From: Streptomyces showdoensis
Lineage (GTDB): Bacteria > Actinomycetota > Actinomycetes > Streptomycetales > Streptomycetaceae
Length of the DNA: 64,000 bases
Assembly (NCBI RefSeq): GCF_039535475.1
Contig: NZ_BAAAXG010000026.1
Location: forward strand, 124,001-188,000
Direction of reading: 5' to 3'
Shown: one piece after another, positions 7,259-23,237 of the stretch
How the letters are laid out: each line of letters starts with the position of its first letter
Numbering within the stretch: the first letter of the stretch is position 1
The notes under the pieces: model-generated
Database searches by the model: none
Told to the model about the DNA's origin: nothing
What the model saw: the letters and a program-made list of their open reading frames with translations, nothing else
Position numbers and translations under genes: made by a program

Positions 7259-8299
7259 TCAGCGGGTCGGGATCGCCTCGATCACGCTGCTCGGCGACGC
7301 CGTCGGCAGGATCCGCGTGAGCGTGAAGCCCGCCGCGTCGAGGAGGGTGCGGAACTCCTCCGCCGTGCGCTCCTGACCGCCGCTGAGCACCATCATGTTG
7401 AGGTCGATGATCTTGCTCGGCGAGAAGCCGCCGCCCTCCGGGACGACCGTGTCCACCACCAGGAGCCGTCCGTCGGCCGGCATCACGCGCCGCACGGACT
7501 TGAGGATCTCGATGCTGGATTCGTCGTTCCAGTCGTGCAGGACCCACTTCATCGTGTAGAGGTCGCCGCCCTCGGGGACCTTCTCGAAGAAGCTGCCGCC
7601 GACCAGTTCGCAGCGGTCCGCGAGGCCCGCGTCGGCGATCCGGGCGCGGCCGTTGGCCACCACGTGCGGCAGGTCGAACACGATGCCCGAGGTCCCCGGG
7701 TGGGCGCCGAGGATCGCGCTCAGGAAGCCGCCCTCGCCGCCGCCGACGTCGACGACCGTTCCGTACGAGGAGAAGTCGAAGACTTCCAGGACCGCGTCCG
7801 CGACCATCGCGGTCAGTCCGGTCATGGCCTTGCCGAGGTGGTCGGCCAGCTCCGGCGTGCGCTCGAAGTACTCCCAGATCGGGTGACCCGACGCGGCCTC
7901 GAAGACCGGCTGTCCGGTGCGTACCGAGTCGGCCAGCAGGCCCCAGGTGCCGTGGTGCGCGGCGCCGAGCTCCAACTGGACGAAGGAGGCGAGGGAGCCG
8001 GGCACGTCGGTGCGCAGGGTGTCGCCGAGGGCCGTGGTCGTGTAGCGGCCCTCCTCGTCGACGCTCAGGACGCCGACGCCGGCGAGCGCGCGCAGCAGGC
8101 GGTGCAGGGAGCGCGGGTCGGTGCCGGTGACGGTGGCGAGCTCGGCGGAGGTCCGGGGCCGCGCGGCGACGTGGTCGGGCAGCCCGAGCACGGTGCCGGC
8201 GTGCACGGCGCGGGCCACCCAGAAACTGGTGACCATCTCGAACATCCGGCCGAAGTCGGGCTCTCGCTGCTCGGTGGCGGCGCTGGTGGGTGCGTCCAT
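7259..8299 (-). CDS. class I SAM-dependent O-methyltransferase
   Basis: 346 residues of the plant-type/antibiotic O-methyltransferase family (Methyltransf_2). The N-terminal winged-helix dimerisation domain is about 15-100 (ARAVHAGTVLGLPDHVA, SLHRLLRALAGVGVL). The SAM-binding glycine motif VVDVGGGEGGFLSAIL is near 185. MKWVLHDWND carries the catalytic-histidine region, and the ending GFTLTRILPT is typical. It would methylate a phenolic hydroxyl. Its position at the end of the minus-strand cluster suggests it tailors the synthetase product, for example a terphenyl hydroquinone. Ribosome site CCGGAG. Confidence 0.9.
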   Translation of the reverse strand: MDAPTSAATEQREPDFGRMFEMVTSFWVARAVHAGTVLGLPDHVAARPRTSAELATVTGTDPRSLHRLLRALAGVGVLSVDEEGRYTTTALGDTLRTDVPGSLASFVQLELGAAHHGTWGLLADSVRTGQPVFEAASGHPIWEYFERTPELADHLGKAMTGLTAMVADAVLEVFDFSSYGTVVDVGGGEGGFLSAILGAHPGTSGIVFDLPHVVANGRARIADAGLADRCELVGGSFFEKVPEGGDLYTMKWVLHDWNDESSIEILKSVRRVMPADGRLLVVDTVVPEGGGFSPSKIIDLNMMVLSGGQERTAEEFRTLLDAAGFTLTRILPTASPSSVIEAIPTR

Positions 8300-8413
8300 G
8301 GGGAAGTCTCCGGGGCTCTGGCTGCGTGTCGTCGTACGGGCGGAGGTAGTGCCTTGCTGTAGGGCGTGCGTGCGTGCGGGTGGGGCGGCGGTACGGGCCG
8401 GGGCGGGTCCGCC

Positions 8414-8454
8414 GTGCGGGGTGACCGGGTCCCGCGGACCCGGCCACCCCGCAC
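8414..8454. terminator. strong hairpin after quinone oxidoreductase gene
   Basis: A 19-bp stem with one mismatch (arms begin GTGCGGGGTG and end CACCCCGCAC) and a CGC loop, in the gap between the oxidoreductase stop and the methyltransferase start. It suggests that the methyltransferase has its own promoter. Confidence 0.6.
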
Positions 8455-8470
8455 GCCCGTGGTGCGGGTG

Positions 8471-9400
8471 TCAGGCGACGGAGACGCCGATCTTGCCGAC
8501 CGTGCCCGCGCCGAAGGCGGCGAAGCCCTGGCCGACCGCGTCCAGGCCGTACGTCTCGGCGATCGGCACCGTCAGGGCGCCGGAGACGACCGCGTCGGCG
8601 AGGCGCTCCAGGGTGGCCGGGTCGGGGTTGGCCATCACGGAGGTGACGGTGATGTCGAGCTCGGTGGCGGCCTCGGGGCCGAAGCCCAGCGTGGAGGCGA
8701 GGCGGCCGCCCGCGGCGACCAGCGCGACGGCGGCCCCCGGGTCGCCGGCCAGGTGGGCCGCGGCGTGCACCCCGCCCGGGGAGAGCGCGTGGACCTGGGC
8801 GGCCAGGTCGGCGGTGTGGTCGACGACGTGGGTGGCGCCGAGGCCCTTCACGAACTCGGTCTCCGCGCCCGGCTTGGCGGTCGCGATGACGGTCGCGCCG
8901 GTCTTGGCGGCGAGCTGCACCGCGTACGCGCCGACGCCGCCGGTCGCGCCGATGACCAGCACCGTCTCGCCCTGCTGCGGGGCGAGCGCGTCGACCACGC
9001 CGACGGCGGCCGAGCCGGCCAGGCCGAGCGCGCCGGCGTGGGCGGACTCCAGGCCCTCGGGGGCGGCGGCGATGCCGTAGCCCTCGCCCACCACCACGTA
9101 CTCGGCGAGGGCGCCGTCCTGGACGACCGGCTTCATCACGACGCCGAAGACCCGCTGGCCGGCGGCGCGGCCGACGCCCTCGCCGACGGCCTCGACCGTG
9201 CCGGCGAAGTCCTTGCCGAGGGTCACCGGGAACTTGTGCTCCAGGACGTCCTTGAGGAAGCCGTAGATGACGGCGCCGTCGAAGCCGTTGAGGGAGGAGT
9301 GACTGACCTTGACCAGGATCTCGCCGGGGCCGGGGACCGGCTTGTCCACCTCGGTGACGGTGGGGGCGGCGCCGAATTCCTCGATGGTCACTGCACGCAT
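8471..9400 (-). CDS. NADP-dependent quinone oxidoreductase (MDR superfamily)
   Basis: 309 residues. The N-terminal GroES-like domain has GEILVKVSHSSLNGFDG and GKDFAGTVEAVGEGV. The nucleotide-binding domain is marked by VLVIGATGGVGAYAVQLA (AxxGxG type), followed by GATHVVDH. No catalytic zinc ligands, so a zinc-free quinone-reductase-type MDR enzyme. Reduction of a quinone or enone intermediate is plausible in a polyporic-acid-like pathway. Ribosome site AGAGGAA. It lies 89 bases downstream of the DUF5519 gene on the same strand, probably co-transcribed. Confidence 0.9.
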   Translation of the reverse strand: MRAVTIEEFGAAPTVTEVDKPVPGPGEILVKVSHSSLNGFDGAVIYGFLKDVLEHKFPVTLGKDFAGTVEAVGEGVGRAAGQRVFGVVMKPVVQDGALAEYVVVGEGYGIAAAPEGLESAHAGALGLAGSAAVGVVDALAPQQGETVLVIGATGGVGAYAVQLAAKTGATVIATAKPGAETEFVKGLGATHVVDHTADLAAQVHALSPGGVHAAAHLAGDPGAAVALVAAGGRLASTLGFGPEAATELDITVTSVMANPDPATLERLADAVVSGALTVPIAETYGLDAVGQGFAAFGAGTVGKIGVSVA

Positions 9401-9489
9401 GGGTGTTTCCTCTTTCTCACTGAGCGGAAGAACGATGGATCCGTGGAAGGGAGCGGCCGGGCGGGGCCGGGGGGCTCGCGGGGCCTCCG

Positions 9490-9957
9490 TCAGGCCACGG
9501 CCTGCTCGTACGAGGCCTGCAGCACGGTGAACGCGACCTCCAGCTCGTCCTCGTCGCGCGGCGCGTAGAGCATCACGATGCTGTCCGGGAACTCCGCGCG
9601 CCGGGTGATGGGGTGCGGCTCGATCCAGCCGAGCTCGGTGAGCGCCGGCAGGGCCTCGACCGGCACCGCGAGGTGCATGAACCCCGACCGGTGGATGTGC
9701 CCGAACTCGTCGACCGACGGGTGCAGGAAGGCCAGGAAGGGCCGGTTGCTCCGGTTCAGCCGCAGGGCGAGCGAGCCGGGCTCGGAGACCAGGCTCGGGC
9801 TGGTGAAGACGCCCGGCAGTCGCTGGGCGCGCTCCACCAGGGCGTCACGGATCTCCGGCGGGGAGAAGTCCTCGAGCTGGTCGTGCGGAATCTCCCGGCC
9901 GGTCGTCTCGGGACGGGGCCCCTTGCGCGGGGGCAGAACGCTCAGATCGACGGCCAT
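9490..9957 (-). CDS. DUF5519 (luciferase-domain) protein
   Basis: 155 residues starting MAVDLSVLPPRKGPRP after GGAGGAAAACC. The central and C-terminal region (FGHIHRSGFMHLAVPVEAL, LTELGWIEPHPITRR, LYAPRDEDELEVAFTVLQ, ASYEQAV) matches the small 'luciferase family' DUF5519 proteins, with conserved histidines in GHIH and EPH. The biochemical role is unknown; the name does not imply light production. It is divergent from the HxlR regulator across a 130-base region with a palindrome, so its transcription is likely controlled by that regulator. Confidence 0.75.
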   Translation of the reverse strand: MAVDLSVLPPRKGPRPETTGREIPHDQLEDFSPPEIRDALVERAQRLPGVFTSPSLVSEPGSLALRLNRSNRPFLAFLHPSVDEFGHIHRSGFMHLAVPVEALPALTELGWIEPHPITRRAEFPDSIVMLYAPRDEDELEVAFTVLQASYEQAVA

Positions 9958-10013
9958 GGTTTTCCTCCGGTGCGGGGCGCGGCAAAGCCGCGCACAAACA
10001 GTGCGCTGGTTAC

Positions 10014-10031
10014 TTCTTGTTTCCACAAGAA
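10014..10031. promoter_or_regulatory. candidate HxlR operator
   Basis: Perfect 7-bp inverted repeat TTCTTGT-TTCC-ACAAGAA in the divergent promoter between the DUF5519 gene and the HxlR-type regulator. It is A/T-rich relative to its surroundings and of a size fitting a winged-helix dimer. Regulator assignment is inferred from position. Confidence 0.5.
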
Positions 10032-10087
10032 TTCTGGGCGATGCTGCAGGGGTGGCAGAAGACGGCACTTCAAAGATCGCAACGCAC

Positions 10088-10453
10088 ATGAATGTTCCTG
10101 ACCAGGTCAGCGAGGGTCTGGCCATCTGTCAGCTGCGTGATGTGCTGGACCGGGTCGGCGACAAATGGAGCGTTCTGATCATGGCGATCCTGGGGGACGG
10201 CCCCCGGCGCTATTCGGAGCTCCGCCGTTCGATCGACGGGATCTCCCAGCGCATGCTGACGCTCACGCTGCGCAGCCTGGAGCGCGACGGCCTGGTGATC
10301 AGGACGGTCACGCCCAGCACGCCGCCGCGCGTCGACTACGAGCTGACGCCGGTCGGGCACACCCTGTCCACGGAGGTGGGCTCGCTGATCAAGTGGTCCG
10401 AGCAGCACCGCGAGTACATCAGCATGTCGCGCCGGACCTTCGACGCGGAGTGA
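10088..10453 (+). CDS. HxlR-family winged-helix transcriptional regulator
   Basis: 121 residues from ATG 10088 (an in-frame GTG at 10052 would add 12). Family hallmarks are CQLRDVLDRVGDKWSVLIM at the N-terminus with the conserved cysteine and KW, RYSELRRSIDGISQRMLT in the recognition region, and RTVTPSTPPRVDYELTPVG in the wing. HxlR proteins commonly respond to redox or electrophilic/quinone signals through that cysteine. It is the only plus-strand gene inside the minus-strand cluster and faces the operon that starts with DUF5519 and the quinone oxidoreductase. It is probably a local repressor of these redox genes. Confidence 0.9.
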   Translation: MNVPDQVSEGLAICQLRDVLDRVGDKWSVLIMAILGDGPRRYSELRRSIDGISQRMLTLTLRSLERDGLVIRTVTPSTPPRVDYELTPVGHTLSTEVGSLIKWSEQHREYISMSRRTFDAE

Positions 10454-10559
10454 GACGGACGGTACGGGGCGACTGACGCGTGCAGGGGGACTGACGCCCG
10501 CACGCGGCTGACGCCAGTACGCGGCTGACGCGCGTGTACGGGCCGGGGCCGACGCGCGT

Positions 10560-10583
10560 ACGGGGCGGCGGGTGCCGCCCCGT
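10560..10583. terminator. hairpin between convergent genes
   Basis: 10-bp stem ACGGGGCGGC/GCCGCCCCGT with loop GGGT, between the HxlR stop and the multicopper oxidase stop. Likely bidirectional terminator. Just before it lie short repeats of the type G(G/A)CTGACGC. Confidence 0.65.
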
Positions 10584-10636
10584 CGCCCCGCACGCGTCCC
10601 GACGGCCCCCGGCCCCGGCCCCGGCCGCGCGACCGG

Positions 10637-12106
10637 TCAGACGATCTTCATGGTGGCCATCATGCCCATCGCCGCGTGGTCGAAGATGTGGCAGTGGTAG
10701 AGGTACGTGCCCCGGTAACCGGTGAACGTGGCCTGGATCTTGACCGTCTCCCCCGGGTTCAGGTTGACCGTGTCCTTGAGCCCGACCTCCGGCCCCGAGG
10801 TCACCGGCACCCCGTTGCGCTCCAGCACCCTGAACTGCACCAGGTGGATGTGGAAGTTGTGCGGGATGATCTTGTTGGCGTTGGTGACGGTCCAGATCTC
10901 CGTGCTGCCGTAGGCGATCTGGGTGTCGACCCGGTTCATGTCGTAGACCAGGCCGTTGATGTAGCCCAGGTCCGACGCCATGCCGTTCTCGTCCATGCTG
11001 AGCGTGATGGAACGGTTCACCGTGGCCGGCGGGAGGGCCGGCAGGGTGCGCAGGTCGTACGGGATGGTGCCGAACTCCTTGCCCGTGCCGGTGACGCGGA
11101 ACTGGAGCACCTTGGTGATCGCGTCCGCGGGGCCGCCCGGCATGGCGTCGGGCGCGTTCTTGAGCTCCAGCGTGGTGCCCAGCGGGTACTCGTAGAAGTC
11201 GATCATGATGTCGACGCGCTCGCCCGGGGAGAGCATCACACTGGTGACCTCCTGCGGCCGGGGCAGCAGTCCGCCGTCGGTGCCGATCAGCGTGAACGGC
11301 TGGTTGCCGGTCAGGCTGAGGTTGAAGTACCGCATGTTCGCGGTGTTGAAGATCCGGAAGCGGTACAGCTTGCGGGCCACCTCGAAGTACGGCCAGGCCT
11401 TGCCGTTGGCGAGGATGACGTTCCGGTTGAGGAAGTCGTCCATGGCGTAGACGAGCTGGCCCTGGTCGTTGAAGCGGGCGTCGCGCAGCTGGATCGGTAT
11501 GTCGTACGCGCCCTTCGGCAGGACGTTGCCCTGCTCGACGTCGTCGGTGAGCAGGTAGGTGCCGCTGAGGCCGAGGAAGACGTTCTCGGACTCCTGGTGG
11601 TGCGCGTGGTCGTGGAACCAGAGGTTCGCGTGCGGCTGCTGGTTCGGGTACGTGTACGTCTTGGTGCCGCCGCCGGGCGCGATGAGGTCCATCGGGCCGC
11701 CGTCGCTGTCCTCCGGCACGTGCGCGCCGTGCAGGTGGACGGAGGTGGCGACGGAGAGGTTGTTCGTCTGCTGCACCACGGCCCGCACGCCCGACTTGGC
11801 GCGGATGACCGGGCCCGGGAAGCTGCCGTTGAAGGTGCGGACCCGGGTGAGGCGGCCGGGGATGATCTCCACGTCCGCCTCCTTCATCGTCATCGCGTAG
11901 TACTCCGCGGTGCCCGTGGAGGAGTACGGGGCGAGCGTCGGGGCGAGGGGCATGCGCTGGGTGAACTTGGGGATGTTCACCGGGTCGAGGTCGGACGCCT
12001 GGGCGGAGCCGCCCGTGGCCGGAATCAGCAGCCCCGCGGCGCCGACCGCGCCGGTGGCCACGCCCGCCTTGAGCATGTTTCTGCGACTGATCACGAAATC
12101 CCCCAT
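10637..12106 (-). CDS. Tat-exported multicopper oxidase (CotA/bilirubin oxidase/phenoxazinone synthase type)
   Basis: 489 residues from ATG 12106 (MGDFVISRRNMLK). The twin-arginine signal SRRNMLKAGVATGAVGAAG predicts export of the folded protein. All four copper-binding motifs are present: SVHLHGAHV, LWFHDHAHH, HNFHIHLVQF, and YHCHIFDHAAMGM with the axial methionine of the type 1 site. Such enzymes oxidise phenols and couple them oxidatively with O2 as acceptor. In this cluster it could oxidise or couple hydroquinone/terphenyl intermediates. It sits downstream of the chorismate mutase gene with a 193-base gap. Confidence 0.92.
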   Translation of the reverse strand: MGDFVISRRNMLKAGVATGAVGAAGLLIPATGGSAQASDLDPVNIPKFTQRMPLAPTLAPYSSTGTAEYYAMTMKEADVEIIPGRLTRVRTFNGSFPGPVIRAKSGVRAVVQQTNNLSVATSVHLHGAHVPEDSDGGPMDLIAPGGGTKTYTYPNQQPHANLWFHDHAHHQESENVFLGLSGTYLLTDDVEQGNVLPKGAYDIPIQLRDARFNDQGQLVYAMDDFLNRNVILANGKAWPYFEVARKLYRFRIFNTANMRYFNLSLTGNQPFTLIGTDGGLLPRPQEVTSVMLSPGERVDIMIDFYEYPLGTTLELKNAPDAMPGGPADAITKVLQFRVTGTGKEFGTIPYDLRTLPALPPATVNRSITLSMDENGMASDLGYINGLVYDMNRVDTQIAYGSTEIWTVTNANKIIPHNFHIHLVQFRVLERNGVPVTSGPEVGLKDTVNLNPGETVKIQATFTGYRGTYLYHCHIFDHAAMGMMATMKIV

Positions 12107-12299
12107 GGTGATCCCGGAAAGAAGACGCCGGGTGTCCGTCGTGAACGAGAGAGGAGAAAGGCCGGCCACGGAGAATCGGGCCGGATCATGGCCTTGATTC
12201 TCCGTTGGCCGGAAAGCTCGTCACAACGGAAGGGGATTCAGGTGTGTGCGCACTTTCCCAGGTCATGCGCACGCTGTGCCGGTTTTCGCCAAGCGAATG

Positions 12300-12653
12300 T
12301 CAATATTCCGCTAGGACGGGCTCGGGAACGCTCTCCTCACGGACGGCCGGAATTCGATGTTCCGCCGCATGTCGCGCGATCGACTCGTGGTGCCGGATGA
12401 CTTCCGCCACGACGAAGTTGAGGAACTTCTCGGCGAACTCCGGATCCAGCCGTGCCGACTCGGCGATGCTCCGCAGCCGGGCGATCTGCCGGGCCTCGCG
12501 CCCGGGGTCGGCCGGCGGCAGGCCGTGCCGGGCCTTCAGCTCGCCGACCCGGCGGGTGTGGGTGAAACGCTCGGCGAGCAGGTGCACCACGGCGGCGTCG
12601 ATGTTGTCGATGCTGTCGCGGATCCGGCCGAGCTCGGCGCGTGCGGTGCTCAT
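12300..12653 (-). CDS. chorismate mutase, AroQ type
   Basis: 117 residues, monofunctional. The helical AroQ pattern is clear: RIRDSIDNIDAAVVHLLAER, the basic strip FTHTRRVGELKARHG, then REARQIARLRSIAESARLDP and the last helix FLNFVVAEVIRHHE. It converts chorismate to prephenate. A separate copy inside a cluster that also encodes DAHP synthase and prephenate dehydratase points to a dedicated phenylpyruvate supply. Ribosome site AAGGAGGA. A strong terminator lies upstream, so it is probably transcribed separately from the DAHP synthase gene. Confidence 0.93.
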   Translation of the reverse strand: MSTARAELGRIRDSIDNIDAAVVHLLAERFTHTRRVGELKARHGLPPADPGREARQIARLRSIAESARLDPEFAEKFLNFVVAEVIRHHESIARHAAEHRIPAVREESVPEPVLAEY

Positions 12654-12745
12654 GCTTCCTCCTTCTCGGGGCTGAGCCGGTGGGCCCGTCGGGCGGGGCG
12701 GGTCCGTCCGGTCCGGCGGAGCCCGTCCGCGTGCGCCGCGGTCCC

Positions 12746-12782
12746 GGGGCCCGCTGCCTCCCTCACGAAGGCAGCGGGCCCC
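12746..12782 (-). terminator. intrinsic terminator after DAHP synthase gene
   Basis: Perfect 14-bp stem GGGGCCCGCTGCCT/AGGCAGCGGGCCCC with a 9-base loop, 22 bases beyond the DAHP synthase stop codon and before the chorismate mutase start. It divides the minus-strand cluster into at least two transcripts. Confidence 0.75.
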
Positions 12783-12804
12783 GCGCCGGGCGTCACGCGG
12801 GCCG

Positions 12805-14217: not shown

Positions 14218-14898
14218 TCAGAGGTGGACGCGCTGGGCGTGCTTGCGGGCGCCCTCCAGCGCCTCCTTCAGCGACTCGGCCGCCAGCCGCTGGAAGCCGG
14301 CCAGCCGGGCCACGTGCCCGGACTTCGTCATCTCCGCGTGCAGGAAGGTCAGGTCGTCGGCGAGGGCGACCATGCCGAGGGCCGCCCTCAGGTACGGCTC
14401 CTGGAAGTCGTACGCCTGGCGCGGCGTGCCCGGGCCGTACGCGCCGCCGCGGGCCGTGACCACGACGACCTGCCGGCCGGCCAGCGGGCCGGTGCCGGTC
14501 TCCGGGTCGACGACCAGCGGCGGGATGACCACCCGGTCCAGCCAGGCCTTGAACGTGGAGGGCAGCGAGAAGTTGTGCATGGGCAGGCCGAGGACGATCG
14601 TGTCGGCGGCGAGCACCTCGTCGACCAGCTCCCAGGTGGTGGCCCAGCTCGCCTTCTCCCCCGCCGTGCGCGCCGCGTCCCGGGCCTCGTCGAGGTCGCG
14701 GACGCCGGCCGCCTCGATCCGCTGGGTCACGGCGATCTGGTCGCCGTCGACGTGCGGGACGGGGGCGGCGCCCAGGTCGCGGTAGAGGTGGGTGCCGCCC
14801 TCGTTGGCGGCGCGCCAGGACGCGGCGAACTCCGCGGTGACGCGGCGGGTGGTGGAGCCGAGGCGGGCGCTGGTGTCGATGTGGAGCAGGGTGGGCAT
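14218..14898 (-). CDS. FMN-dependent NADH-azoreductase / quinone reductase
   Basis: 226 residues of the AzoR/AcpD flavodoxin-like family. Features are the phosphate-binding HIDTSARLGSTTRRV at the N-terminus, PMHNFSLPSTFKAWLDRV (flavin-binding and dimer helix) and VVVVTARGGAYGPGTPRQAYDF. These enzymes reduce quinones by two electrons with NAD(P)H. It sits between the prephenate dehydratase and DAHP synthase genes on the same strand, so reduction of a dihydroxybenzoquinone intermediate is a likely job here. Ribosome site AGGAGAGG. Confidence 0.9.
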   Translation of the reverse strand: MPTLLHIDTSARLGSTTRRVTAEFAASWRAANEGGTHLYRDLGAAPVPHVDGDQIAVTQRIEAAGVRDLDEARDAARTAGEKASWATTWELVDEVLAADTIVLGLPMHNFSLPSTFKAWLDRVVIPPLVVDPETGTGPLAGRQVVVVTARGGAYGPGTPRQAYDFQEPYLRAALGMVALADDLTFLHAEMTKSGHVARLAGFQRLAAESLKEALEGARKHAQRVHL

Positions 14899-15004: not shown

Positions 15005-16012
15005 CTAGGTGCGGGTGCTCGGCGCGGGGTGGTCGGAGCGGAGGCGCCCGCGGAGGCGCCGTTCCGTCGTGCCGAGCCGTTCCGCCCCGGCGGAGCGACT
15101 CGGCACGACGGCGGGGGCGGGGGCGGAACGCATGCCCACGACGGAGCGGGGCGGGACGGCCGTCCACCTCGGGTAGCTGCCCAGGAAGCGGGCCGAGGCG
15201 CCGGCTCCGGGGAGGTGCGACAGGACCCGGCGCACCGCCGGGTTCTCGACGTGGCCGTCCACGTCGACGAAGTAGCGGTAGCTGCCCAGGCGTTCGCCGG
15301 TGGGCCAGGCGTGGACGCGGCTCACCTCGATGTCGCGGTCGGTGAAGAGGCCGAGGACCGCGGCGAGCCGGGCGGGGCCGCCGTCCTCGGTGGTGACGAC
15401 CAGGGAGGTGCGGTCCCGGTCGGTGCGGGCGGGCGGGAACCAGGCCGGGGAGACCGCGACGAAGCGGGTGACCGCTCCGCCGCGGCGGCCGAGGCCGGCG
15501 GCCAGGACCCGCAGGCCGTAGCGCTCGGCGGCCGGCGGGGCGGCGACGGCCGCCGCCCCGCCGCCCGGCCGCCGCGCCACCTCGCGCGCGGCGGCCGCCG
15601 TGGAGTCGGCCGGTACGGCCCGGGCGCCCGGGAGGTGCTCGTCCAGCCACCCGGCGCACTGCGCGAGGGCGTGCGGGTGGCTGTACACCTCCCGTACGTC
15701 GCCGAGGTCCGTGCCGGCCGGCGCCATCAGGGCGAAGGTCACCGGGAGTTCGACCTCGCCGGTGATGTGCAGCCCGGACTCGGCCAGCTGGTCCATGGTG
15801 GCGGGCACGACGCCCTTCACCGAGTTCTCCAGCGGGACCACGGCCGTCGCGCAGTCGCCGCGGCGGACCGCGTCCAGGGCCGCGGGGACACTGGGGTACG
15901 GGCGCCGGGGCAGTTCCTCGCCGTGGGCGGCGTACGCGGGGAGTCTGCGCAGCGCCGCCTCGGTGAAGGTGCCCTCGGGACCCAGGTAGGCGTACGCGGT
16001 GGCGGATGTCAT
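15005..16012 (-). CDS. prephenate dehydratase with altered ACT domain
   Basis: 335 residues. The catalytic domain (1-190) has YLGPEGTFTEAAL, VVPLENSVKGVVP and the essential TRF motif in GGAVTRFVAVS. The ACT domain (about 205-285) keeps the fold (TSLVVTTEDG, SYRYFVDVDGH), but the two Phe-binding motifs are degenerate: GAL is GPARL, and ESRP is replaced by VSRVHAWP. Loss of these motifs abolishes phenylalanine feedback in studied enzymes, so this copy may be deregulated. A basic 50-residue C-terminal extension follows. It makes phenylpyruvate, the expected substrate of the synthetase. Only 15 bases separate it from the upstream NTF2-like gene. Confidence 0.93.
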   Translation of the reverse strand: MTSATAYAYLGPEGTFTEAALRRLPAYAAHGEELPRRPYPSVPAALDAVRRGDCATAVVPLENSVKGVVPATMDQLAESGLHITGEVELPVTFALMAPAGTDLGDVREVYSHPHALAQCAGWLDEHLPGARAVPADSTAAAAREVARRPGGGAAAVAAPPAAERYGLRVLAAGLGRRGGAVTRFVAVSPAWFPPARTDRDRTSLVVTTEDGGPARLAAVLGLFTDRDIEVSRVHAWPTGERLGSYRYFVDVDGHVENPAVRRVLSHLPGAGASARFLGSYPRWTAVPPRSVVGMRSAPAPAVVPSRSAGAERLGTTERRLRGRLRSDHPAPSTRT

Positions 16013-16027: not shown

Positions 16028-16432
16028 TCAGCTCTCGATCACGCGGTGGAAGGCGACGGTGTCGAAGATGTCCTCCATGCGGACGGCCTTGCCGTCGCGG
16101 AACGTCCAGGAGTGGACGAACTGCAGCGTCTCGGTGTGGCCGCGGCGGGAGGTGACGTCGCGGACGCCGAAGACGACGACCCGGTCGCCGTGGTCGAGGA
16201 ACTCCAGGGGCTGGAGCCGCATCCCGCCCAGGACGGTGGGGACGTGGGCCAGGAAGGCGCGGACGCCGGCGTGGCCGTGCTTGGTGCCGCCGAGGCCGTA
16301 GGCGTGCATGCCCTCGGGGTGGATCCACTCCATGTCCTCGGCCATGGTGGCGACGAGGGCGTCGACGTCACGGTCGCGGAAGGCCGCGTAGGCGGCGTGG
16401 ATCAGGTCCAGGTTGCTGGTGGTCGTGGTCAT
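16028..16432 (-). CDS. SnoaL-like/NTF2-fold protein, possible dehydratase
   Basis: 134 residues of NTF2-like fold: helix LDLIHAAYAAFRDRDVDALV, MAEDMEWIHPEG, then strands LEFLDHGDRVVVFGVRD, LQFVHSWTFRDGKAV and EDIFDTVAFHRV. Polar residues (His, Asp, Glu) point into the cone as in SnoaL-type enzymes. It is tightly sandwiched between the reductase (13-base gap) and prephenate dehydratase genes. A reductase-dehydratase pair, TerB/TerC, is known from p-terphenyl biosynthesis; whether this small protein plays the dehydratase part is inference. Ribosome site GAGGAGCGG. Confidence 0.85.
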   Translation of the reverse strand: MTTTTSNLDLIHAAYAAFRDRDVDALVATMAEDMEWIHPEGMHAYGLGGTKHGHAGVRAFLAHVPTVLGGMRLQPLEFLDHGDRVVVFGVRDVTSRRGHTETLQFVHSWTFRDGKAVRMEDIFDTVAFHRVIES

Positions 16433-16445
16433 CGCTCGCCGCTCC

Positions 16446-17372
16446 TCAGCGCTGCTTCGCGTACTCGGGATACATGGACTCGACGGTGCGGCGGATGCCC
16501 TCGCGCCAGTCGACCTTGCAGGGGCCGGTGAGGCGCTTCCGCAGGGTCGGGTCGAACTGGTAGGTCTCGCGGGTGACCTCGCTCGGCACCAGCTTGGCCT
16601 CGACGCCGGTGAGCTCCTCCAGGTAGCGGACGCAGTCGGTGATGCCGACGGACTCGTCGCCGCCCCAGTTGGTGAGGGTGGCGGGCACGGTCGCCGCGTT
16701 CCACAGGTGGGGGACCTGCTCGACGAGGTCGTCGGTGTAGAGCAGGGAGCACCAGTTCTGGCCCTCGACCGGGACCGGGATGGGCTCGCCGGCGAGCATC
16801 CGCTTGAAGTAGAGCATCGGGACGCCGCCGTAGCCGCCGGGTCCGTACGCGATGTTGAGGCGGGCGATGATCGTGGGCAGGCCGAGGGTCGCCGCGTACG
16901 CGCGGACCGCGCCCTCGGTGGCGATCTTGACCACGGGGTAGGCGGGCAGCCAGTCGGCGACGCCGTCGACCGGGTCGTCCTCGTGGTAGGCGTGGTCGAG
17001 GGTCTGGCGCTTGTAGAGGGCGCCGGTGGAGACGTACAGGAACGCCTCCGCGGTGCGACAGTGGGTCATCAGGCGGCCGGCGGCCACGGTGTTGACCTCG
17101 ATCGCCCGGTTGAAGTCGCCGTCCTCGCCGCGGTTCACGGCGGAGTGGATGACATGGGTGAAGTCCTCGGGCAGGCCCTTGAGGGCGTCCTCGCCCGTGT
17201 CGTCCATGTCCCAGCGGAAGGTGGTGATGCCGTGCTCGCGCAGCGCCTCCTCCGAGCCGGGGGCGCCGAAGCGCCCGAGCGCCCAGACCTCGTTGTCCTG
17301 GGCGAGCGCCTTGGCGACCGGTCCGGCCACCTGGCCCGTGCCGCCGGTGACCAGGATCTTCTTGCCGTTCAT
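16446..17372 (-). CDS. NAD(P)-dependent epimerase/dehydratase-family reductase
   Basis: 308 residues, extended SDR. The Rossmann motif [18 protein letters not shown] is at the N-terminus, then [22 protein letters not shown] with the serine, and the catalytic YxxxK in [12 protein letters not shown] substrate-binding C-terminal part follows ([23 protein letters not shown]). It starts 25 bases after the synthetase stop codon, so it is almost surely co-transcribed and acts on the released product. Reduction of a polyporic-acid-like quinone is a reasonable hypothesis by analogy with the terfestatin pathway. Ribosome site AAGGGGA. Confidence 0.88.
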
Positions 17373-17397
17373 GTGTGCAATCCCCTTCGTTTCGTGC

Positions 17398-20160
17398 TTA
17401 CTTGCCGTCGCCGAGCGCCCGGTCGAGCTCCTTGCGGAGGATCGACTGGAAGCCGGCCACGTGCTGCGGGCCCATCAGCGTGTAGTGCTCGCCGGGGACG
17501 TCGATGAAGGTGACGTCGTCGGCGTGCTCCTTCCAGCGGCTCAGCTCGTTGTTGAGCCAGTCCTCCTTGGTGCCGCGCAGCGGTATCGCGTAGAAGACGG
17601 ACATGCCGCGGACGCGCCCGGAGGGCGCGTAGCTGCGGCCGAGGTCGGTGAGGCCGTCGGCGAGTTCGGCCCAGGCGGTGAACTTGGCCAGGTCCAGGTC
17701 GAGTTCGGCGAGCCGGGCCTGCGGCGCGTGCTCGATGAAGTAGGCCAGCTGCTCCTCCTTCGACAGGTGGCCCAGCTGCTTGGGCAGCTCCAGCGACTGC
17801 TTCTTGTCGATGAGGGCGAGGAAGAAGGCCAGGTTGGCGGCGGTCTCGACGAAGTCCAGCTCGTCCATGCGGTACTTGATGTGCGGGGGCAGGTTGAAGC
17901 TGCCGATGAAGTCGACCCGCTCGCCCTCGGCCTCCAGCACCTTGGCGATCTCGAAGGCGACGGCGCCGCCGTACGAGTAGCCGGCCACGGCGTACGGGCC
18001 GTGCGGCTGCTTCTCGCGGATGGCGGCGACGTAGGTGCTCACCATCTCCTCGAAGCTCTCGAAGGGCTTCTCGCCGGGGTTGAAGCCGCGGGCGCGCAGC
18101 GCGTAGAAGGGCCGGTCGCCGACGAAGTACTTGGCGAGGTTGACGAAGACGAGGACCTCGCCGACGCCGGGGTGGACGCAGAACAGCGGCGTCTTGTCGC
18201 CGACCACCTGCATGGGCACGATCGGGTCGTACGGGCGTTCCGCCGCTCCGCCGGCCGCGTCCTCGGCGAGCCGGGCGGCCAGCGCGCGGACGGTCGGGGC
18301 CATCAGGACGGTGATGATCTGGAGGTCGTTCGCGCCGAGGCGGCGGGCGACCAGGCTGCGCAGCCGCAGGATGTCGAGCGAGGTGCCGCCGAGGTCGAAG
18401 AAGTTGGCGGTGGCGCTCAGCTTGGCCGGGTCGGTGTCGAACATCTCCGCGTAGATCCCGGCGAGGACCGTCTCGGTCTCGCCCTCGGGCGCGGTGTAGC
18501 CGCCGAGGCGGCGCAGGATCAGGTCGGCGACGGCGTCGGCGGTCTCCGCGTACGCCCCGGCTTCGAGCCGCTTGCGCATGAGCGGGCGCTGGATCTTGCC
18601 GAGGCTGGTCTTCGGGAAGGCCTCCTTCGGCAGCGGGAGGATCAGCGAGGGGCGGAAGCCCCAGTGCATGACGACGCTGGCCCGGACCGCGGACAGGACG
18701 CGGTAGAGGGCGAGTTCGTCGCCCTCCTCGACCTCGGGGTGGAAGGCGACGACGAGCTGCTCGGTGTCGGAGCCGGGGGCCCGGGTGGGGAAGGCGGCGA
18801 CGTAGGAGCGGGCGACGTCGTCGAGCTCCTGGAGCAGGGTCTCGATGTCGTGGCTGAAGTAGTTGACGCCGTTGACGATGATGCTGTCCTTGCTGCGGCC
18901 GACGAGGGTGAGCCGCCCGTCGTCGATCCGGCCCAGGTCGCCGCTGCGGAACCAGCCGTCGGCGGTGAAGGCGTCCTTCGTGGCCTGCTCGTTGTTGTGG
19001 TAGCCGGGCGTGATCATCGGGCCGAGGAGCTGGAGCTCGCCGGTCTCGCCCTCGCCCAGCGGCCGGTCCCGCTCGTCGGCGACGCGGATCCGCAGGCCGT
19101 CGACCGGGCGGCCGAGGTTGGCGAACTCCTGCCCCTGGTCGGAGGCGGGGAACTCGCGCGAGTAGATGGAGCCGGCGCAGGTCTCGGTCATGCCGAACGC
19201 GGGCCACAGGGTGTCGCCGGCCAGTCCGTACGGGGCGAAGTGGGCCAGGAAGGCCTCGCCGGTGGTGCGGACCACGGCCTCGCCGCCGCTGATGATGTGC
19301 CGCAGCTTCGACAGGTCGACGGGGCCGTGCTCGTCGAGCCGGTCGGCCGAGGCGTTGAGCAGCCCGAGCAGGAAGTTCGGGGTGAAGGTCATGGTGACGC
19401 CGTAGCGGGAGATCAGCCGCAGGAAGTCGAGCGGTTCGCCGAGGACGACGGCCGCCTCGACGTGCAGCTGGGTGGCGCCGACGGAGAGCGGCAGCAGGTG
19501 GCACTCCAGGAGCGCGGCGACGTGGTCGAAGGAGACCCAGTTGAGCGAGGTGTCCTCGGAGCCGATGCGGTGGGCGGTGTTCTTGCCCGCCATGGAGGCG
19601 ATCAGGTTGGCGTGGGTGAGCCGGACGGCCTTGGAGTTGCCGGTGGAGCCGGAGGTGAGGACGAGCAGCGCGGTGTCCTCGGGGGCCGCCTCGTGCAGCA
19701 GGTCGGCCGGATCGGCGCCGTACAGCGTGTCCAGGGCGGTGACGGCGAGGCCGTCGACGCGGGGCAGCTCGGCGGCCAGGCTGTCGTTGGTGACGACCAG
19801 CGGCCCGTCGAGCAGGGTGTGGACGTGGCCGAGCTGGGCGGCCCAGCGCTCCGGGTCGCCGCCGAGCGGGGCCATCGGCACGGGCACGTAGCCGCCGAGG
19901 AGGCAGGCCCAGAAGGCGGTGAGGAACTCCTGCGGGCGCTCCAGGAGCAGGACGACCTTGTCCTGCGGGGCGAGCCCGCGGGCGCGCAGCCCGGTGAGGA
20001 CCCGGCGGGCCTCGTGCACCAGCTCCGGGTACGGCTGGAGGTGCGCGGCCGCGGCACCGGCGTCGCCCTCGTGGTAGAGGACTCCGGAGCCGGGGTGTGC
20101 CTCCGCGGCCTGGAGCAGCAGGTCCGCGACGGTCCGGGTCGATGGGATGGCCACGGTCAT
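17398..20160 (-). CDS. NRPS-like synthetase A-T-TE, aryl keto acid type
   Basis: 920 residues from ATG 20160 ([16 protein letters not shown]). The adenylation domain is about 1-560: [12 protein letters not shown] (A3), [14 protein letters not shown] (A4 region, where keto-acid-activating enzymes lack the amino-acid-binding Asp), [10 protein letters not shown] (A5), GDLGRID (A7), PKTSLGKIQ (A10 Lys). The carrier domain has [10 protein letters not shown] with Ser594 as pantetheine site. The thioesterase is about 665-920: [18 protein letters not shown] with Ser729, and GEHYTLMG with the catalytic His. No condensation domain. This architecture matches atromentin/polyporic-acid/ralfuranone synthetases (EchA, TerA, RalA types), which dimerise two phenylpyruvates by Claisen condensation at the TE. 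The clustered phenylpyruvate genes support this. Confidence 0.92.
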
Positions 20161-20447
20161 GGCGATGTCCTCTCTCTGGTGTGCGGTGTGCGGTGCGGTG
20201 CCCCGTGGAGGGGGCGCGACAGGTGCCGGAACACGGCCGCCGCCGGCTGCGGGATGGGCAGCACGACGGCGACGGAGACGGCGTGGGGGCGGCCGGGGGG
20301 AGGTGGTTCCGGCCGGGCGGGCCGCGCGGTGAAGACAGCGCACCGACCTTGACGTCCAGCTTCTTCGGACGGGCGGCGGCGTTCAATGGGGCTTGTGTCA
20401 GAGCTCTGTCGGGTTTCTCAAATCCCGGTAGGGGTGCGCGGGTTCTC
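20161..20447. promoter_or_regulatory. intergenic region upstream of synthetase gene
   Basis: 287 bases between the phosphopantetheinyl transferase stop and the synthetase start; presumed promoter of the synthetase operon. It contains TCAGAGCTC(T/G)GTC at 20398-20410, repeated at 20448-20460 (50-base spacing), the second copy overlapping the transferase stop codon. No ORF supported. The promoter itself is not resolved. Confidence 0.35.
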
Positions 20448-21125
20448 TCAGAGCTCGGTCAGGGACGGCACGTGGTGGGGCAGCGGGGGGCCGCTGACGG
20501 AGCGGGGCGCGCGCAGGGCGACGGCGGCGTGGTGGCGGGGGCCGCAGGGCAGGTCGTCCACGGTCCAGCCGGCCGGGTCGGTGCCGAGGTCGTCCAGGGT
20601 GGTGTCGCGGCCGAGCCCGGTGCCGAGTCCCTTGAGGTACGCCTCCTTGCGCGCCCAGAGCCGGCCGAAGGCGGCGGCCCGCGCCGCGGCGCCGGGCTCG
20701 GCGGCGACCGCGGCGCGTTCGCCTGGGTGGAGGGCGGCCAGCAGTCCGGGCACGGCCTCGGGCGCGGGGCGGCGCTGGGCGTCGGCGCCGACGGGAACGG
20801 GGGCGAGGGCGACGAGGACCAGGCCCTCGGTGTGCGACAGGGAGAAGTGCAGCGGCGGTTCGGGGACGGCGAGCACCGGGCGCCCGTGCGCGGCGCCGCA
20901 GCAGGGGCAGGGCTCGCGCCCGAAGACCAGCTCCTCGGGGCGCTCGCCGAGCGACCGCGCGAGGAGGGTGCGGAGCGCGAGGTGGGCCACCGTGTACAGG
21001 GTGCGGTCGGAGGCCCGGAGGAAGGACGCGGCGCGGTGGCGCTCGTGGGCGTCGAGGGCGGTGGTGTCGAGGGCGTCGGCGGACACGGTGGCGTCCACCT
21101 CCAGGAACCAGGCTTCGGCCTGCAT
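20448..21125 (-). CDS. Sfp-type 4'-phosphopantetheinyl transferase
   Basis: 225 residues. Motifs are LHFSLSHTEGLVLVAL, VPVGADAQRR (the usual GxDxE metal site, here with Gln for Glu) and WARKEAYLKGLGTGL (WxxKEAxxK). A CPCCG pair at about 72-76 is a frequent insertion in actinobacterial members. It transfers phosphopantetheine from CoA to the carrier-domain serine of the adjacent synthetase. The ATG at 21125 has GAGGAGA upstream; a longer frame runs into the tandem repeats and is unlikely. Downstream of the HTH/zinc protein gene on the same strand. Confidence 0.9.
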   Translation of the reverse strand: MQAEAWFLEVDATVSADALDTTALDAHERHRAASFLRASDRTLYTVAHLALRTLLARSLGERPEELVFGREPCPCCGAAHGRPVLAVPEPPLHFSLSHTEGLVLVALAPVPVGADAQRRPAPEAVPGLLAALHPGERAAVAAEPGAAARAAAFGRLWARKEAYLKGLGTGLGRDTTLDDLGTDPAGWTVDDLPCGPRHHAAVALRAPRSVSGPPLPHHVPSLTEL

Positions 21126-21180
21126 CGGGCGGGGTCTCCTCGGGCTCGGAGGGTACGGGGGGGACGGGAGTACGGGGGAC

Positions 21181-21320
21181 ACGGGTGGGACGGGGGACGC
21201 GGGTACGGGTGGGACGGGGGACGCGGGTACGGGTGGGACGGGGGACGCGGGTACGGGTGGGACGGGGGACGCGGGTACGGGTGGGACGGGGGACGCGGGT
21301 ACGGGTGGGACACGGGTACG
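21181..21320 (+). repeat. 24-bp G-rich tandem repeat (5 exact copies)
   Basis: Five identical consecutive 24-base units at 21181-21300, each beginning ACGGGTGGGACGGGGG, then a partial copy; imperfect units precede it from about 21155. It lies immediately upstream of the phosphopantetheinyl transferase start (that gene reads leftward). Multiple GGG runs give quadruplex potential on the plus strand. Copy number is likely to vary between strains. Confidence 0.85.
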
Positions 21321-21462
21321 GAGGGAACGGCGACGCCCCGCCGTCCGGACGGGTGCCGGGGGGCGGGGCGTCGGGTGTCGGGGCAGGACCGCGGGGGTGG
21401 CCGCGGCGGGGCGGGGCGGGGCGGCGGGCGGGCGTGGCGGCGGGCCCGGGCCCCGGGGGGGG

Positions 21463-22458
21463 TCATTTCATCGCGGGGGTGCGGGGCCGCCGGCCGCTGA
21501 GGCTGCCGTGGACGTCGCTCTCCGCGTAGTACGTGCGGCCGTAGCGGTTCCGTCTGCGCCACCGCTGCTCGCTGGCGAGCCGGTACACCGTCCCGGTCGG
21601 CGCGCCCCACAGGTCCGCGATGTCCCGTGCGGTGAGCCAGCGTTCGACGGGCGGGGGCGGGGACGGCGCCGCAGGCACGGACGCGGGTACGGACGCGGGT
21701 ACGGACGCCGCGGCGGAGGTGGCCGTCGGCGGGACCGCGGCCGGTGCCGGGGGCACCGACGGCACCGCGGCCGCCGCGCACTGGGCGGGCCCGCGCTGCG
21801 CGGGCACCCGCTGGCCCGGCATCGCGCGGCGCAGCCGGGTCCACTCGTGGCCCGCCCACTGGTGGGCCGGGTCCGCGTCGCACAGGATCCGCCGGGTGCC
21901 GGAGACCACCGCGAGCCGGCCCGCGCAGCCGGGCTCGACGCACGGACCGACCGGGAGGTGCCGGACGGGCTCGCGGGCCACCCGCCGGGCGGCGCCGACC
22001 AGCCGCTCCAGCTCGCGGGTGGCGTCCGCGACGGCCGGGTGGGCGGCCAGCCACTCGGCGCTGCGCAGCAGGAAGGCCGCCAGGTGCGCGGGGGTGCGCC
22101 GGGGGGCGGGGAAGCCCCGCTCGTCGGCGACGAGTCCGCTCCAGGAGCCGAGGGTGGCGACGATCGCCGAACGCACCTCGGCCGCCGGGCCGTTGAGCGG
22201 GATCCCGGCGGGTCTGCCGCCGGTGCCGCGCCTTTCGCCGGTGCCGCGCGCCGGTCCGGCGCCGCCGAGCACCCGCTCGCACTCGGCGTAGAGGCCGGGA
22301 AGTTCCTCGAGGACCGCGACCAGCCGGCCCAGACATGGGGGGCAGAGCCGGAGGTCCGGCCGTGCCCGTCGTTTGCCGCCGCCGTCGACGGCGCTCCGCC
22401 TGCAGTCCTCGCCCACGCACACGGCCCGCGGGGGCAGGTGCGTCGCCGGGTGAGCCAT
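21463..22458 (-). CDS. zinc-motif and helix-turn-helix protein, possible regulator
   Basis: 331 residues from ATG 22458 (MAHPATHLPPRAVC). The N-terminal half has cysteine pairs (CVGEDC, LCPPC) and a second set (CVEPGCAG, ILCDAD), suggesting two small zinc-binding units. A Pro/Ala/Ser-rich linker follows, with VPASVPASVPA repeats. The C-terminal helix-turn-helix is WLTARDIADLWGAPTGTVYRLASE, with a basic tail RRRNRYGR. No named family recognised; similar layouts occur in phage- or plasmid-type DNA-binding proteins. Just downstream of the response regulator on the same strand, so possibly a cluster regulator. Confidence 0.65.
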   Translation of the reverse strand: MAHPATHLPPRAVCVGEDCRRSAVDGGGKRRARPDLRLCPPCLGRLVAVLEELPGLYAECERVLGGAGPARGTGERRGTGGRPAGIPLNGPAAEVRSAIVATLGSWSGLVADERGFPAPRRTPAHLAAFLLRSAEWLAAHPAVADATRELERLVGAARRVAREPVRHLPVGPCVEPGCAGRLAVVSGTRRILCDADPAHQWAGHEWTRLRRAMPGQRVPAQRGPAQCAAAAVPSVPPAPAAVPPTATSAAASVPASVPASVPAAPSPPPPVERWLTARDIADLWGAPTGTVYRLASEQRWRRRNRYGRTYYAESDVHGSLSGRRPRTPAMK

Positions 22459-22502
22459 TTTCCGTTTCTCCGTGTTCCGAAGCCGTGCGCCGACGCTGCC
22501 GA

Positions 22503-23237
22503 TTACACTTTGCCGAGCTTGAAACCGACACCGCGAATGGTGACGATCCAGTCCCGACAGCCGAGCTTGTTGCGGAGGCTGCTCACATGGGTGTCCACGG
22601 TTCTGCGGGACCAGGAATCCCCCCATATCTGCTGCATGAGCCTTTTACGGGGGACGACGTTTCCGGGATTCGAGGCGAGCAGATAAAGGACGTCGAACTC
22701 TTTTCGGGTGACGTCGATCTGCTTTCCGTCGAGGCTGACCTGGCGGGCACCGGCGTCAATACGCAGCGGCCCCTGGTCGATGACGTCGACGGCGCGCGGC
22801 CGGGGCCTGGACCGGCGCATGACGGCCTGCATGCGGGCCATGAGTTCGCGGAATCCGTACGGCTTGACCATGTAGTCGTCGGCGCCGGCCTGGAGGCCGA
22901 GGACCCGGTCGAGTTCGGAGCCGCGGGCGGTGACCGCGATGATCGGGGTGTCACCGGCGGCGCGAATCGCCCGACACACCTCAAGGCCGTCGAGATCGGG
23001 CAGTTCGAGATCGATCAGGACCAGGTCGGCCGAGGTGTAGACCTGGAGCGCGGCGCCGCCGGTCTCGACCGTCGACACCTGGTGGCCGTGCCGGCGCAGC
23101 CCCGTCACGAGCGACTCCGCGTACCGGAGCTCGCTCTCCACCACGAGGATCCGCCAGCTGTCGCAGCCGACGGAATCCCGGTCGATATAAACGTCGGGTA
23201 TGAGAGGTTTCGGTTTTTCCTGCGTACGCTGACTCAT
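22503..23237 (-). CDS. OmpR/PhoB-type response regulator, orphan
   Basis: 244 residues. The receiver domain (about 28-140) begins ILVVESELRYAE, so the usual acidic pair is Glu-Ser-Glu. It keeps the phospho-acceptor Asp in LVLIDLELPD, Thr in IIAVTARG and Lys in MVKPYGF. The winged-helix DNA-binding domain (about 155-244) includes LTRKEFDVLYLLASNPG-type sequence and RTVDTHVSSLRNKLG. No histidine kinase is adjacent. Cluster-situated OmpR-type regulators with modified receiver pockets (JadR1 type) respond to small molecules rather than phosphorylation; this could be one. First gene of the minus-strand cluster. Confidence 0.9.
   Translation of the reverse strand: MSQRTQEKPKPLIPDVYIDRDSVGCDSWRILVVESELRYAESLVTGLRRHGHQVSTVETGGAALQVYTSADLVLIDLELPDLDGLEVCRAIRAAGDTPIIAVTARGSELDRVLGLQAGADDYMVKPYGFRELMARMQAVMRRSRPRPRAVDVIDQGPLRIDAGARQVSLDGKQIDVTRKEFDVLYLLASNPGNVVPRKRLMQQIWGDSWSRRTVDTHVSSLRNKLGCRDWIVTIRGVGFKLGKV

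What the first reader, a model, noticed from the sequence alone, without database searches (positions are those of the whole stretch)
7259..23237. Probable p-terphenyl / polyporic-acid-type biosynthetic cluster with its own phenylpyruvate supply
A-T-TE synthetase without a condensation domain, DAHP synthase, chorismate mutase and prephenate dehydratase form a self-contained phenylpyruvate-to-dimer route. Reductase, NTF2-like protein, quinone reductases, O-methyltransferase and multicopper oxidase could tailor the quinone. Known relatives are EchA/TerA (echosides, terfestatins) and RalA (ralfuranones). No glycosyltransferase is seen here, so the product may be a methylated or oxidised aglycone not yet described.
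Basis: partly seen in the sequence, partly recalled or inferred. Interest (0 to 1): 0.75.

Follow-up and report, generated by a model that had tools for sequence, protein, structure and literature searches.

The report
Streptomyces terphenyl cluster with precursor supply
A Streptomyces gene cluster that very probably joins two phenylpyruvate units into a three-ring aromatic (p-terphenyl) compound and carries extra copies of enzymes that make phenylpyruvate; the chemistry is known from relatives, the built-in and possibly feedback-released supply line is the unusual part.

Summary
The genes reported are present. The core (A-T-TE synthetase, epimerase-type reductase, NTF2-like protein) is the echoside/terfestatin/daturamycin core: the reductase matches TerB (568 bits) and the NTF2-like protein TerC (206 bits). 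Published work on that core gives phenylpyruvate, then polyporic acid, then 2',3',5'-trihydroxyterphenyl. With the in-cluster O-methyltransferase the simplest product is terferol, a known compound. All steps here are inferred from homology.

Less expected: (1) a small clade (window, L004, L005, L006, L124) keeps the gene order from response regulator to mycothiol-dependent reductase, while DAHP synthase, chorismate mutase and multicopper oxidase come and go. (2) The prephenate dehydratase and its six most similar synthetase-linked relatives read WP instead of RP in the phenylalanine-binding ESRP motif; four more distant linked copies keep RP, as do 27 of 30 other Streptomyces copies. Feedback release is an inference. 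(3) A DUF5519 gene is in the four clusters sequenced that far and, at 77% or more, in 2 of 392 Streptomyces genomes, both with this cluster. A fungal terferol pathway (alf) also carries a DAHP synthase in its cluster. New variant of a known kind.

The parts
5956..6651 (-). Rv2466c-like mycothiol-dependent reductase (DsbA fold), probable downstream edge of the cluster
   Evidence: PF22234 E 7e-58; same place in L004 (63%), L005 (62%) and L124 (60%)
6752..7102 (-). DoxX-like membrane protein
   Evidence: PF13564; same place in L004, L005, L124
7259..8299 (-). O-methyltransferase, predicted to methylate the terphenyl hydroquinone
   Evidence: PF00891 E 1e-53; best solved relative 6c5b, 279 bits; conserved in L004, L005, L124
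8471..9400 (-). zinc-type alcohol dehydrogenase / quinone oxidoreductase
   Evidence: PF00107, PF08240; conserved in L004, L005, L124
9490..9957 (-). DUF5519 'luciferase-domain' protein, signature gene of this sub-family; role unknown
   Evidence: PF17648; at 77% identity or more in 2 of 392 Streptomyces genomes, both carrying this cluster
10637..12169 (-). probably Tat-exported multicopper oxidase, bilirubin-oxidase/CotA type
   Evidence: PF07732, PF07731 and a TAT_signal match just above its cut-off in E-value but below it in bits (21.4 against 22.7); best solved relative 8z59 bilirubin oxidase; copper-ligand motifs and SRRNMLK present; 65% homologue in L124
12300..12653 (-). AroQ-type chorismate mutase, extra copy
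   Evidence: PF01817 E 2.5e-21; three CM_2 matches in the genome; conserved in L004
12805..14172 (-). class-II DAHP synthase, second full-length copy
   Evidence: PF01474 E 2e-195; 72% to the other full-length copy L084, 84% to the L004 cluster copy
14218..14898 (-). FMN-dependent azoreductase-type quinone reductase
   Evidence: PF02525; 7awv 128 bits; a homologue in 13 of 80 relatives' loci
15005..16012 (-). prephenate dehydratase with ACT domain whose ESRP motif reads HAWP
   Evidence: PF00800 E 1e-52; motif comparison
16028..16432 (-). TerC/EchC homologue (NTF2-like dehydratase partner)
   Evidence: 6d34 TerC, E 3e-60 over residues 5-134
16446..17372 (-). TerB/EchB homologue (epimerase-type ketoreductase)
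   Evidence: 6d2v/6nd7 TerB, E 6e-170 over residues 1-304
17398..20160 (-). A-T-TE polyporic acid synthetase (EchA/DatA type), 920 aa, 99.8 kDa
   Evidence: PF00501, PF00550, PF00975; A domain nearest McyG and the 6ulx/6ulw A domain; motifs conserved
20448..21182 (-). 4'-phosphopantetheinyl transferase, probably for the carrier domain
   Evidence: PF01648; no match to it in L004, L005 or L124 at the thresholds
22503..23237 (-). OmpR-type response regulator, likely cluster regulator
   Evidence: PF00072, PF00486; homologue upstream of the synthetase in L004, L005, L006, L124

Best explanation
A p-terphenyl biosynthetic cluster of the echoside/terfestatin/daturamycin kind. DAHP synthase, chorismate mutase and prephenate dehydratase raise the phenylpyruvate flux (inferred). 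The PPTase arms the carrier domain (inferred). The A-T-TE enzyme adenylates phenylpyruvate, holds it on carrier and thioesterase, and joins two units by Claisen-Dieckmann condensation to polyporic acid (shown for EchA and DatA in the literature; inferred here). The TerB/TerC pair reduces and dehydrates it to 2',3',5'-trihydroxyterphenyl (reported for EchB/EchC; inferred here). The O-methyltransferase gives terferol or a close O-methyl terphenyl, and the quinone reductases and the exported multicopper oxidase set the quinone/hydroquinone state (inferred). The ACT-domain change in the prephenate dehydratase probably weakens or removes phenylalanine feedback (inferred). The confidence given is for the route as far as the trihydroxyterphenyl; I put a terferol-type end product at about 0.55.
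For: TerB and TerC matches over nearly full length. A domain nearest McyG and the 6ulx/6ulw A domain, sharing the NWxxxDH pocket stretch. Over 87 aligned synthetases: GYS of the thioesterase 87 of 87, carrier GGTS 86 of 87, GEH 84 of 87, NWxxxDHVA 87 of 87. DatA and EchA make polyporic acid from phenylpyruvate (PMC9379647). EchB/EchC form the 2',3',5'-trihydroxy core (passage and title of reference 24 in PMC12105029). AlfA+AlfC+AlfD give terferol. Gene order conserved in L004, L005, L124. TerB and TerC homologues both lie beside the synthetase in 58 of 80 relatives' loci. Other copies of DAHP synthase, chorismate mutase and prephenate dehydratase exist elsewhere in the genome, so the cluster copies are extra.
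Against: No chemistry for this strain. O-methyltransferase position and number of methylations cannot be read from sequence. Chorismate mutase is missing in L005 and L124, DAHP synthase in L005, multicopper oxidase in L004 and L005, so none of the three is essential to the pathway. A glycosyltransferase elsewhere in the genome could add a sugar; none was searched for. For the feedback claim: four of ten synthetase-linked relatives (L037, L039, L042, L073) keep RP; three of 30 other Streptomyces copies lack it (ESYQ type), one of them the only prephenate dehydratase found in its genome; and the companion GAL motif varies among the 30 as well (GAL 16, GGL 11, other 3).
Confidence: 0.8

Rival explanations
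1. Same core, but the end product is a daturamycin/betulinan-type compound: polyporic acid itself is methylated or contracted to a diarylcyclopentenone, with the multicopper oxidase doing the oxidation.
For: The dat locus has a bilirubin oxidase (DatD) and an NADPH-dependent oxidoreductase (DatE) downstream of datABC, and its strain makes terferol, betulinan A and daturamycins. The window has a bilirubin-oxidase-type multicopper oxidase and a flavodoxin-type reductase.
Against: No role of DatD is shown in the parts read. The multicopper oxidase is absent from the L004 and L005 loci and, besides the window, lies near the synthetase in 1 of 43 other genomes. TerB/TerC would pull flux away from polyporic acid.
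Confidence: 0.25
2. Same core, ending in a glycosylated terphenyl (echoside/terfestatin type), with the sugar added by an enzyme encoded elsewhere.
For: Same ABC core as echoside and terfestatin.
Against: No glycosyltransferase among the 38 window ORFs scanned; an O-methyltransferase is conserved in L004, L005, L124. The rest of the genome was not searched for one.
Confidence: 0.12
3. A furanone or other non-quinone product, as with RalA.
For: RalA is also an A-T-TE enzyme (recalled).
Against: TerB/TerC homologues act on a terphenylquinone, and 58 of 80 related synthetases (62-82% identical) have both beside them.
Confidence: 0.03

Closest known systems
Echoside cluster (EchA, EchB, EchC; Streptomyces sp. 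LZ35)
   Same: A-T-TE + epimerase-type reductase + NTF2-like protein; synthetase 67-70% identical to L028-L036, S. hygroscopicus-group and similar loci that I take as stand-ins for EchA
   Different: No match to the cluster's DAHP synthase, chorismate mutase, prephenate dehydratase, DUF5519 protein, O-methyltransferase or multicopper oxidase in L028-L036, three of which are cut by contig ends. EchA itself was not in hand.
Terfestatin TerB/TerC
   Same: Near full-length matches to the solved enzymes
   Different: The rest of the ter cluster was not available for comparison.
Daturamycin cluster (datA-E, Streptomyces sp. KIB-H1544)
   Same: ABC core plus a bilirubin oxidase and an NADPH-dependent oxidoreductase; O-methylated aglycone products
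   Different: No supply genes mentioned in parts 1 and 2 of 3, where phenylpyruvate is drawn from phenylalanine; its sequence was not in hand.
Allantofuranone alf cluster (fungal, Allantophomopsis lycopodina)
   Same: A-T-TE, reductive dehydration, O-methyltransferase to terferol, and a DAHP synthase (alfS) in the cluster
   Different: Fungal; one bifunctional AlfC in place of TerB+TerC; has the ring-cleavage dioxygenase AlfB; no prephenate dehydratase, chorismate mutase or multicopper oxidase in the gene list seen.

Membership tests
Bacterial polyporic-acid / p-terphenyl (EchABC-type) clusters | A-T-TE synthetase without condensation domain | tested here: met
   Pfam
Bacterial polyporic-acid / p-terphenyl (EchABC-type) clusters | A domain of the aromatic keto-acid type | tested here: met
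   By similarity only: nearest solved A domains McyG 4r0m and 6ulx/6ulw, whose substrate types are recalled. The substrate was not assayed.
Bacterial polyporic-acid / p-terphenyl (EchABC-type) clusters | TerB/EchB reductase and TerC/EchC NTF2-like partner next to the synthetase | tested here: met
   13-25 bp gaps
Bacterial polyporic-acid / p-terphenyl (EchABC-type) clusters | Polyporic acid formed from phenylpyruvate | not testable with these tools
   Needs an enzyme assay
Echoside/terfestatin glycosides | Sugar-transfer gene in the cluster | tested here: inconclusive
   None among 38 scanned window ORFs; whether the known clusters carry theirs was not tested
Terferol-type (O-methyl trihydroxyterphenyl) pathway | Synthetase, reductive dehydration and O-methyltransferase together | tested here: met
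   methylation itself and its site not tested
RalA (ralfuranone) | Furanone product without a TerB/TerC step (recalled) | tested here: not met
   TerB/TerC homologues present

The most novel reading that the evidence does not exclude
The clade has evolved a dedicated, phenylalanine-insensitive phenylpyruvate line feeding a terphenyl hydroquinone that the exported multicopper oxidase oxidises or couples outside the cell, with the DUF5519 protein as a new dedicated step; the product would then be an extracellular oxidised or dimeric terphenyl pigment or redox cycler rather than terferol itself.
Probability: 0.15. Interest if true: 0.65.

Novelty: new variant of a known kind. Interest (0 to 1): 0.4.

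Why it matters
It shows a terphenyl pathway that carries its own branch-point enzymes, with a prephenate dehydratase whose effector motif has changed in all seven copies of its close group (window and six linked relatives). If confirmed, it gives a natural feedback-released prephenate dehydratase, a case of bacterial and fungal terferol-type clusters each holding a DAHP synthase, and a specific unknown gene (DUF5519) to test.

Tried and rejected
In-frame TGA codons reported in seven 55-58% relatives of the synthetase suggested recoding or gene splitting. Reading the DNA of those seven (L130-L135, L137) showed that the stop is the natural one at the C-terminus. Rejected. An eighth TGA, in the N-terminal piece of the split G108 copy, was not followed.

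Loss of a C-terminal DAHP-synthase-contacting motif in the cluster chorismate mutase was considered; the copy elsewhere in the genome (L001) has the same core and simply ends earlier, so there is no loss to interpret.

A deregulated short-type DAHP synthase was considered; the cluster enzyme is full-length and 72% identical to the other full-length copy, unlike the shorter copies on C27 and C7. Rejected.

A structure of the DUF5519 protein was wanted; the prediction machine was busy three times, so no fold was obtained.

Counts to read with care: the 80 loci are the best of 105, and 18 of the 80 are shorter than 22.5 kb because of contig ends, so absences there are lower bounds. L080 and L127 were dropped from the tree (partial or split synthetase). 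L078/L125, L060/L129 and L033/L138 are probably the same genomes (equal contig lengths). In some searches I gave 43 of the 45 genomes, besides the window's, that had a synthetase-like match of 55% or more; G213 and G350, with split matches, were left out, while G031, G046, G309, G356 and G108, also partial or split, were kept. Closeness to the synthetase was computed for the seven genomes with two prephenate dehydratase matches and for five multicopper oxidase matches; for the rest, and for DAHP synthase, I compared by eye the coordinates with those. The 30 reference prephenate dehydratases are the best-scoring loci plus L093, not a random draw, and their housekeeping role was not proven. One search scored at most 9 candidates per genome. 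One search (papers on TerB and TerC) found nothing.
Full report
What is there. The window lies in an 8.5 Mb genome in 29 contigs. A-T-TE, reductase, NTF2-like protein and prephenate dehydratase are 13-25 bp apart.

The core. The epimerase-type reductase matches TerB (PDB 6d2v, 6nd7) over residues 1-304 with 568 bits, and the NTF2-like protein matches TerC (6d34) over residues 5-134 with 206 bits. The A domain is nearest McyG (4r0m, 360 bits) and the A domain of 6ulx/6ulw (that these take keto or phenylpropanoid acids is recalled). Over 87 aligned synthetases, the window among them, the pocket stretch NWxxxDHVA is in 87, the carrier GGTS in 86, the thioesterase GYS in 87 and GEH in 84. DatA and EchA convert phenylpyruvate to polyporic acid (m/z 291.0663), and a datA knockout loses compounds 1-6 (PMC9379647, parts 1 and 2 of 3 read). 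The EchB/EchC step to the 2',3',5'-trihydroxy core and the TerB/TerC reductase-dehydratase work were seen only as a passage and reference titles in PMC12105029; the TerB/TerC paper is not held. TerB and TerC homologues both lie beside the synthetase in 58 of the 80 loci.

The product. In PMC12105029 (abstract and passages) polyporic acid synthetase AlfA, reductive dehydratase AlfC and O-methyltransferase AlfD give terferol, and the alf cluster carries a DAHP synthase (alfS). The window holds the same functions in bacterial form: A-T-TE, TerB+TerC, an O-methyltransferase nearest 6c5b and then CalO6 and MmcR among solved structures, and a DAHP synthase. Terferol or a close O-methyl terphenyl is therefore the simplest prediction. 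Terferol has been isolated from Streptomyces sp. KIB-H1544. Polyporic acid and terferol share nominal m/z 291 in negative mode and need high resolution to tell apart.

The supply genes. Elsewhere the genome has a second full-length class-II DAHP synthase (L084, 72% identical to the cluster copy) plus three shorter ones on C27 and C7, a second prephenate dehydratase (L093, 45%) and two more chorismate mutase matches, one of them L001 at 76%. So the cluster copies are additional. Among the 80 loci, a linked prephenate dehydratase was found in 8 (L004, L005, L007, L010, L037, L039, L042, L073), class-II DAHP synthase in 2 (L004, L042), this type of chorismate mutase in 1 (L004) and this multicopper oxidase in none; 18 of the 80 loci are cut short. 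Among 43 Streptomyces genomes with a synthetase of 55% or more, besides the window's, a prephenate dehydratase lay within 8 kb of the synthetase in 4 (G284, G108, G180, G289), and the DAHP synthase and the multicopper oxidase in 1 (G284).

The ACT domain. ESRP and GALV are the ligand-binding motifs of the ACT domain (PMC10845154, passages). In the window and its six most similar synthetase-linked relatives (L004, L005, L124, L007, L127, L010) the RP of ESRP reads WP. Of 30 other Streptomyces copies (L093 and L140-L168) 27 read QSRP and 3 read ESYQ; two of those three come from genomes with a second copy, the third (L151) is the only one found in its genome. The four more distant linked copies (L037, L039, L042, L073) keep RP but have a changed GAL stretch. 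The GAL stretch differs in the window group too, but it varies among the 30 as well (GAL 16, GGL 11, SAL 2, ASL 1), so it says little. The catalytic TRF is intact in all 41 rows. I infer that the cluster enzyme has lost or altered phenylalanine control; this was not assayed, and the RP-keeping linked copies show that the change is not required for a terphenyl cluster.

A conserved sub-family. A FastTree tree of 87 synthetases puts the window with L124, L004, L005 and L006 (support 0.99), next to L007, L078, L079, L125, L126 (support 1.0 for the joint group). In this clade a related response regulator lies upstream in 5 of 5. In the four members with sequence downstream (L006 ends at the synthetase) the order TerB, TerC, prephenate dehydratase, azoreductase-type reductase, DUF5519, zinc-type reductase, O-methyltransferase, DoxX, mycothiol-dependent reductase is kept in 4 of 4. 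DAHP synthase is in 3 of 4 (not L005), chorismate mutase in 2 of 4 (window, L004) and the multicopper oxidase in 2 of 4 (window, L124). The PPTase upstream of the synthetase is peculiar to the window within this clade, though weakly similar PPTases are found in 18 of the 80 loci.

The DUF5519 gene. At 77% identity or more it is found in 2 of 392 Streptomyces genomes, the window's own and G284, both inside this cluster; seven others have 39-45% matches. Two of the close homologues in the protein collection share a contig with a close synthetase, by strain name and contig length: Streptomyces sp. DG2A-72 and NPDC051211. Others, such as S. capillispiralis (82%), and 60-70% relatives in Nocardia and other actinomycetes, were not checked for a synthetase, so the gene is not shown to be exclusive to the cluster. 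It is a signature of the sub-family with no function that I can assign.

The multicopper oxidase. It is nearest a bilirubin oxidase (8z59, 254 bits) and CotA, has the copper-ligand motifs and a twin-arginine stretch, SRRNMLK at residue 28, with a Pfam TAT_signal match slightly under its cut-off (21.4 against 22.7 bits), so it is probably exported. The dat locus also has a bilirubin oxidase. Export is what makes an extracellular oxidation step conceivable; nothing here shows that it takes place.

Literature. The listings of searches did not show a bacterial terphenyl cluster described with in-cluster DAHP synthase, chorismate mutase and prephenate dehydratase, and one search found no paper; one search listed 20 of 146 papers and one search listed 20 of 402, and subscription papers are mostly missing, so this is not proof of absence. 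Echoside-like clusters are reported as common (17 clusters in 129 Streptomyces genomes, 7 of 11 Streptacidiphilus genomes; PMC7601586, passage), and a comparison of related clusters already notes differences on both sides of the core between strain 11-1-2 and the terfestatin strain RM-5-8 (PMC11074319, passage).

Verdict. The interest lies in the built-in supply line, the altered prephenate dehydratase, and the unknown signature gene.

Noticed in passing
window 36093-44267 (-): 2724-residue RHS-repeat protein with ricin-type lectin domains and a pretoxin HINT domain near the C-terminus, the build of a polymorphic-toxin protein.
   Followed up: no
window 47958-49127 (-) and 49131-50114 (+): Two AurF-type N-oxygenase genes in divergent orientation, 3 bp apart, the second a close and the first a distant match to the family.
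   Followed up: no
window 52684-58449: NIT-domain histidine kinase, an ATP-binding protein of the conservon type (name recalled) and a styrene-monooxygenase-like protein in one stretch, all on the minus strand.
   Followed up: no
window 23682-25856: Ku and LigD primase-polymerase genes in divergent orientation just upstream of the cluster regulator.
   Followed up: no
own genome C27 about 426-438 kb and C7 about 4.4-5.6 kb: Three shorter class-II DAHP synthases (39-43% to the cluster copy), two of them about 10 kb apart, hinting at further shikimate-derived clusters.
   Followed up: no
L043, L046, L057, L073, L081, L082: Related synthetases outside actinomycetes: Burkholderia, Hyalangium, Methylocapsa, Sporolactobacillus; the Methylocapsa locus also has TerB, TerC, O-methyltransferase and prephenate dehydratase matches.
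   Followed up: partly
L044, L047, L048, L050, L051, L053, L055, L071, L139: A separate Streptomyces group has the synthetase with a 55-59% TerB homologue and an O-methyltransferase but no TerC match: how, or whether, it dehydrates is open.
   Followed up: no
L127 (G108): The synthetase is matched in two overlapping pieces in different frames, with TerB, TerC, prephenate dehydratase and reductase matches beside it.
   Followed up: no
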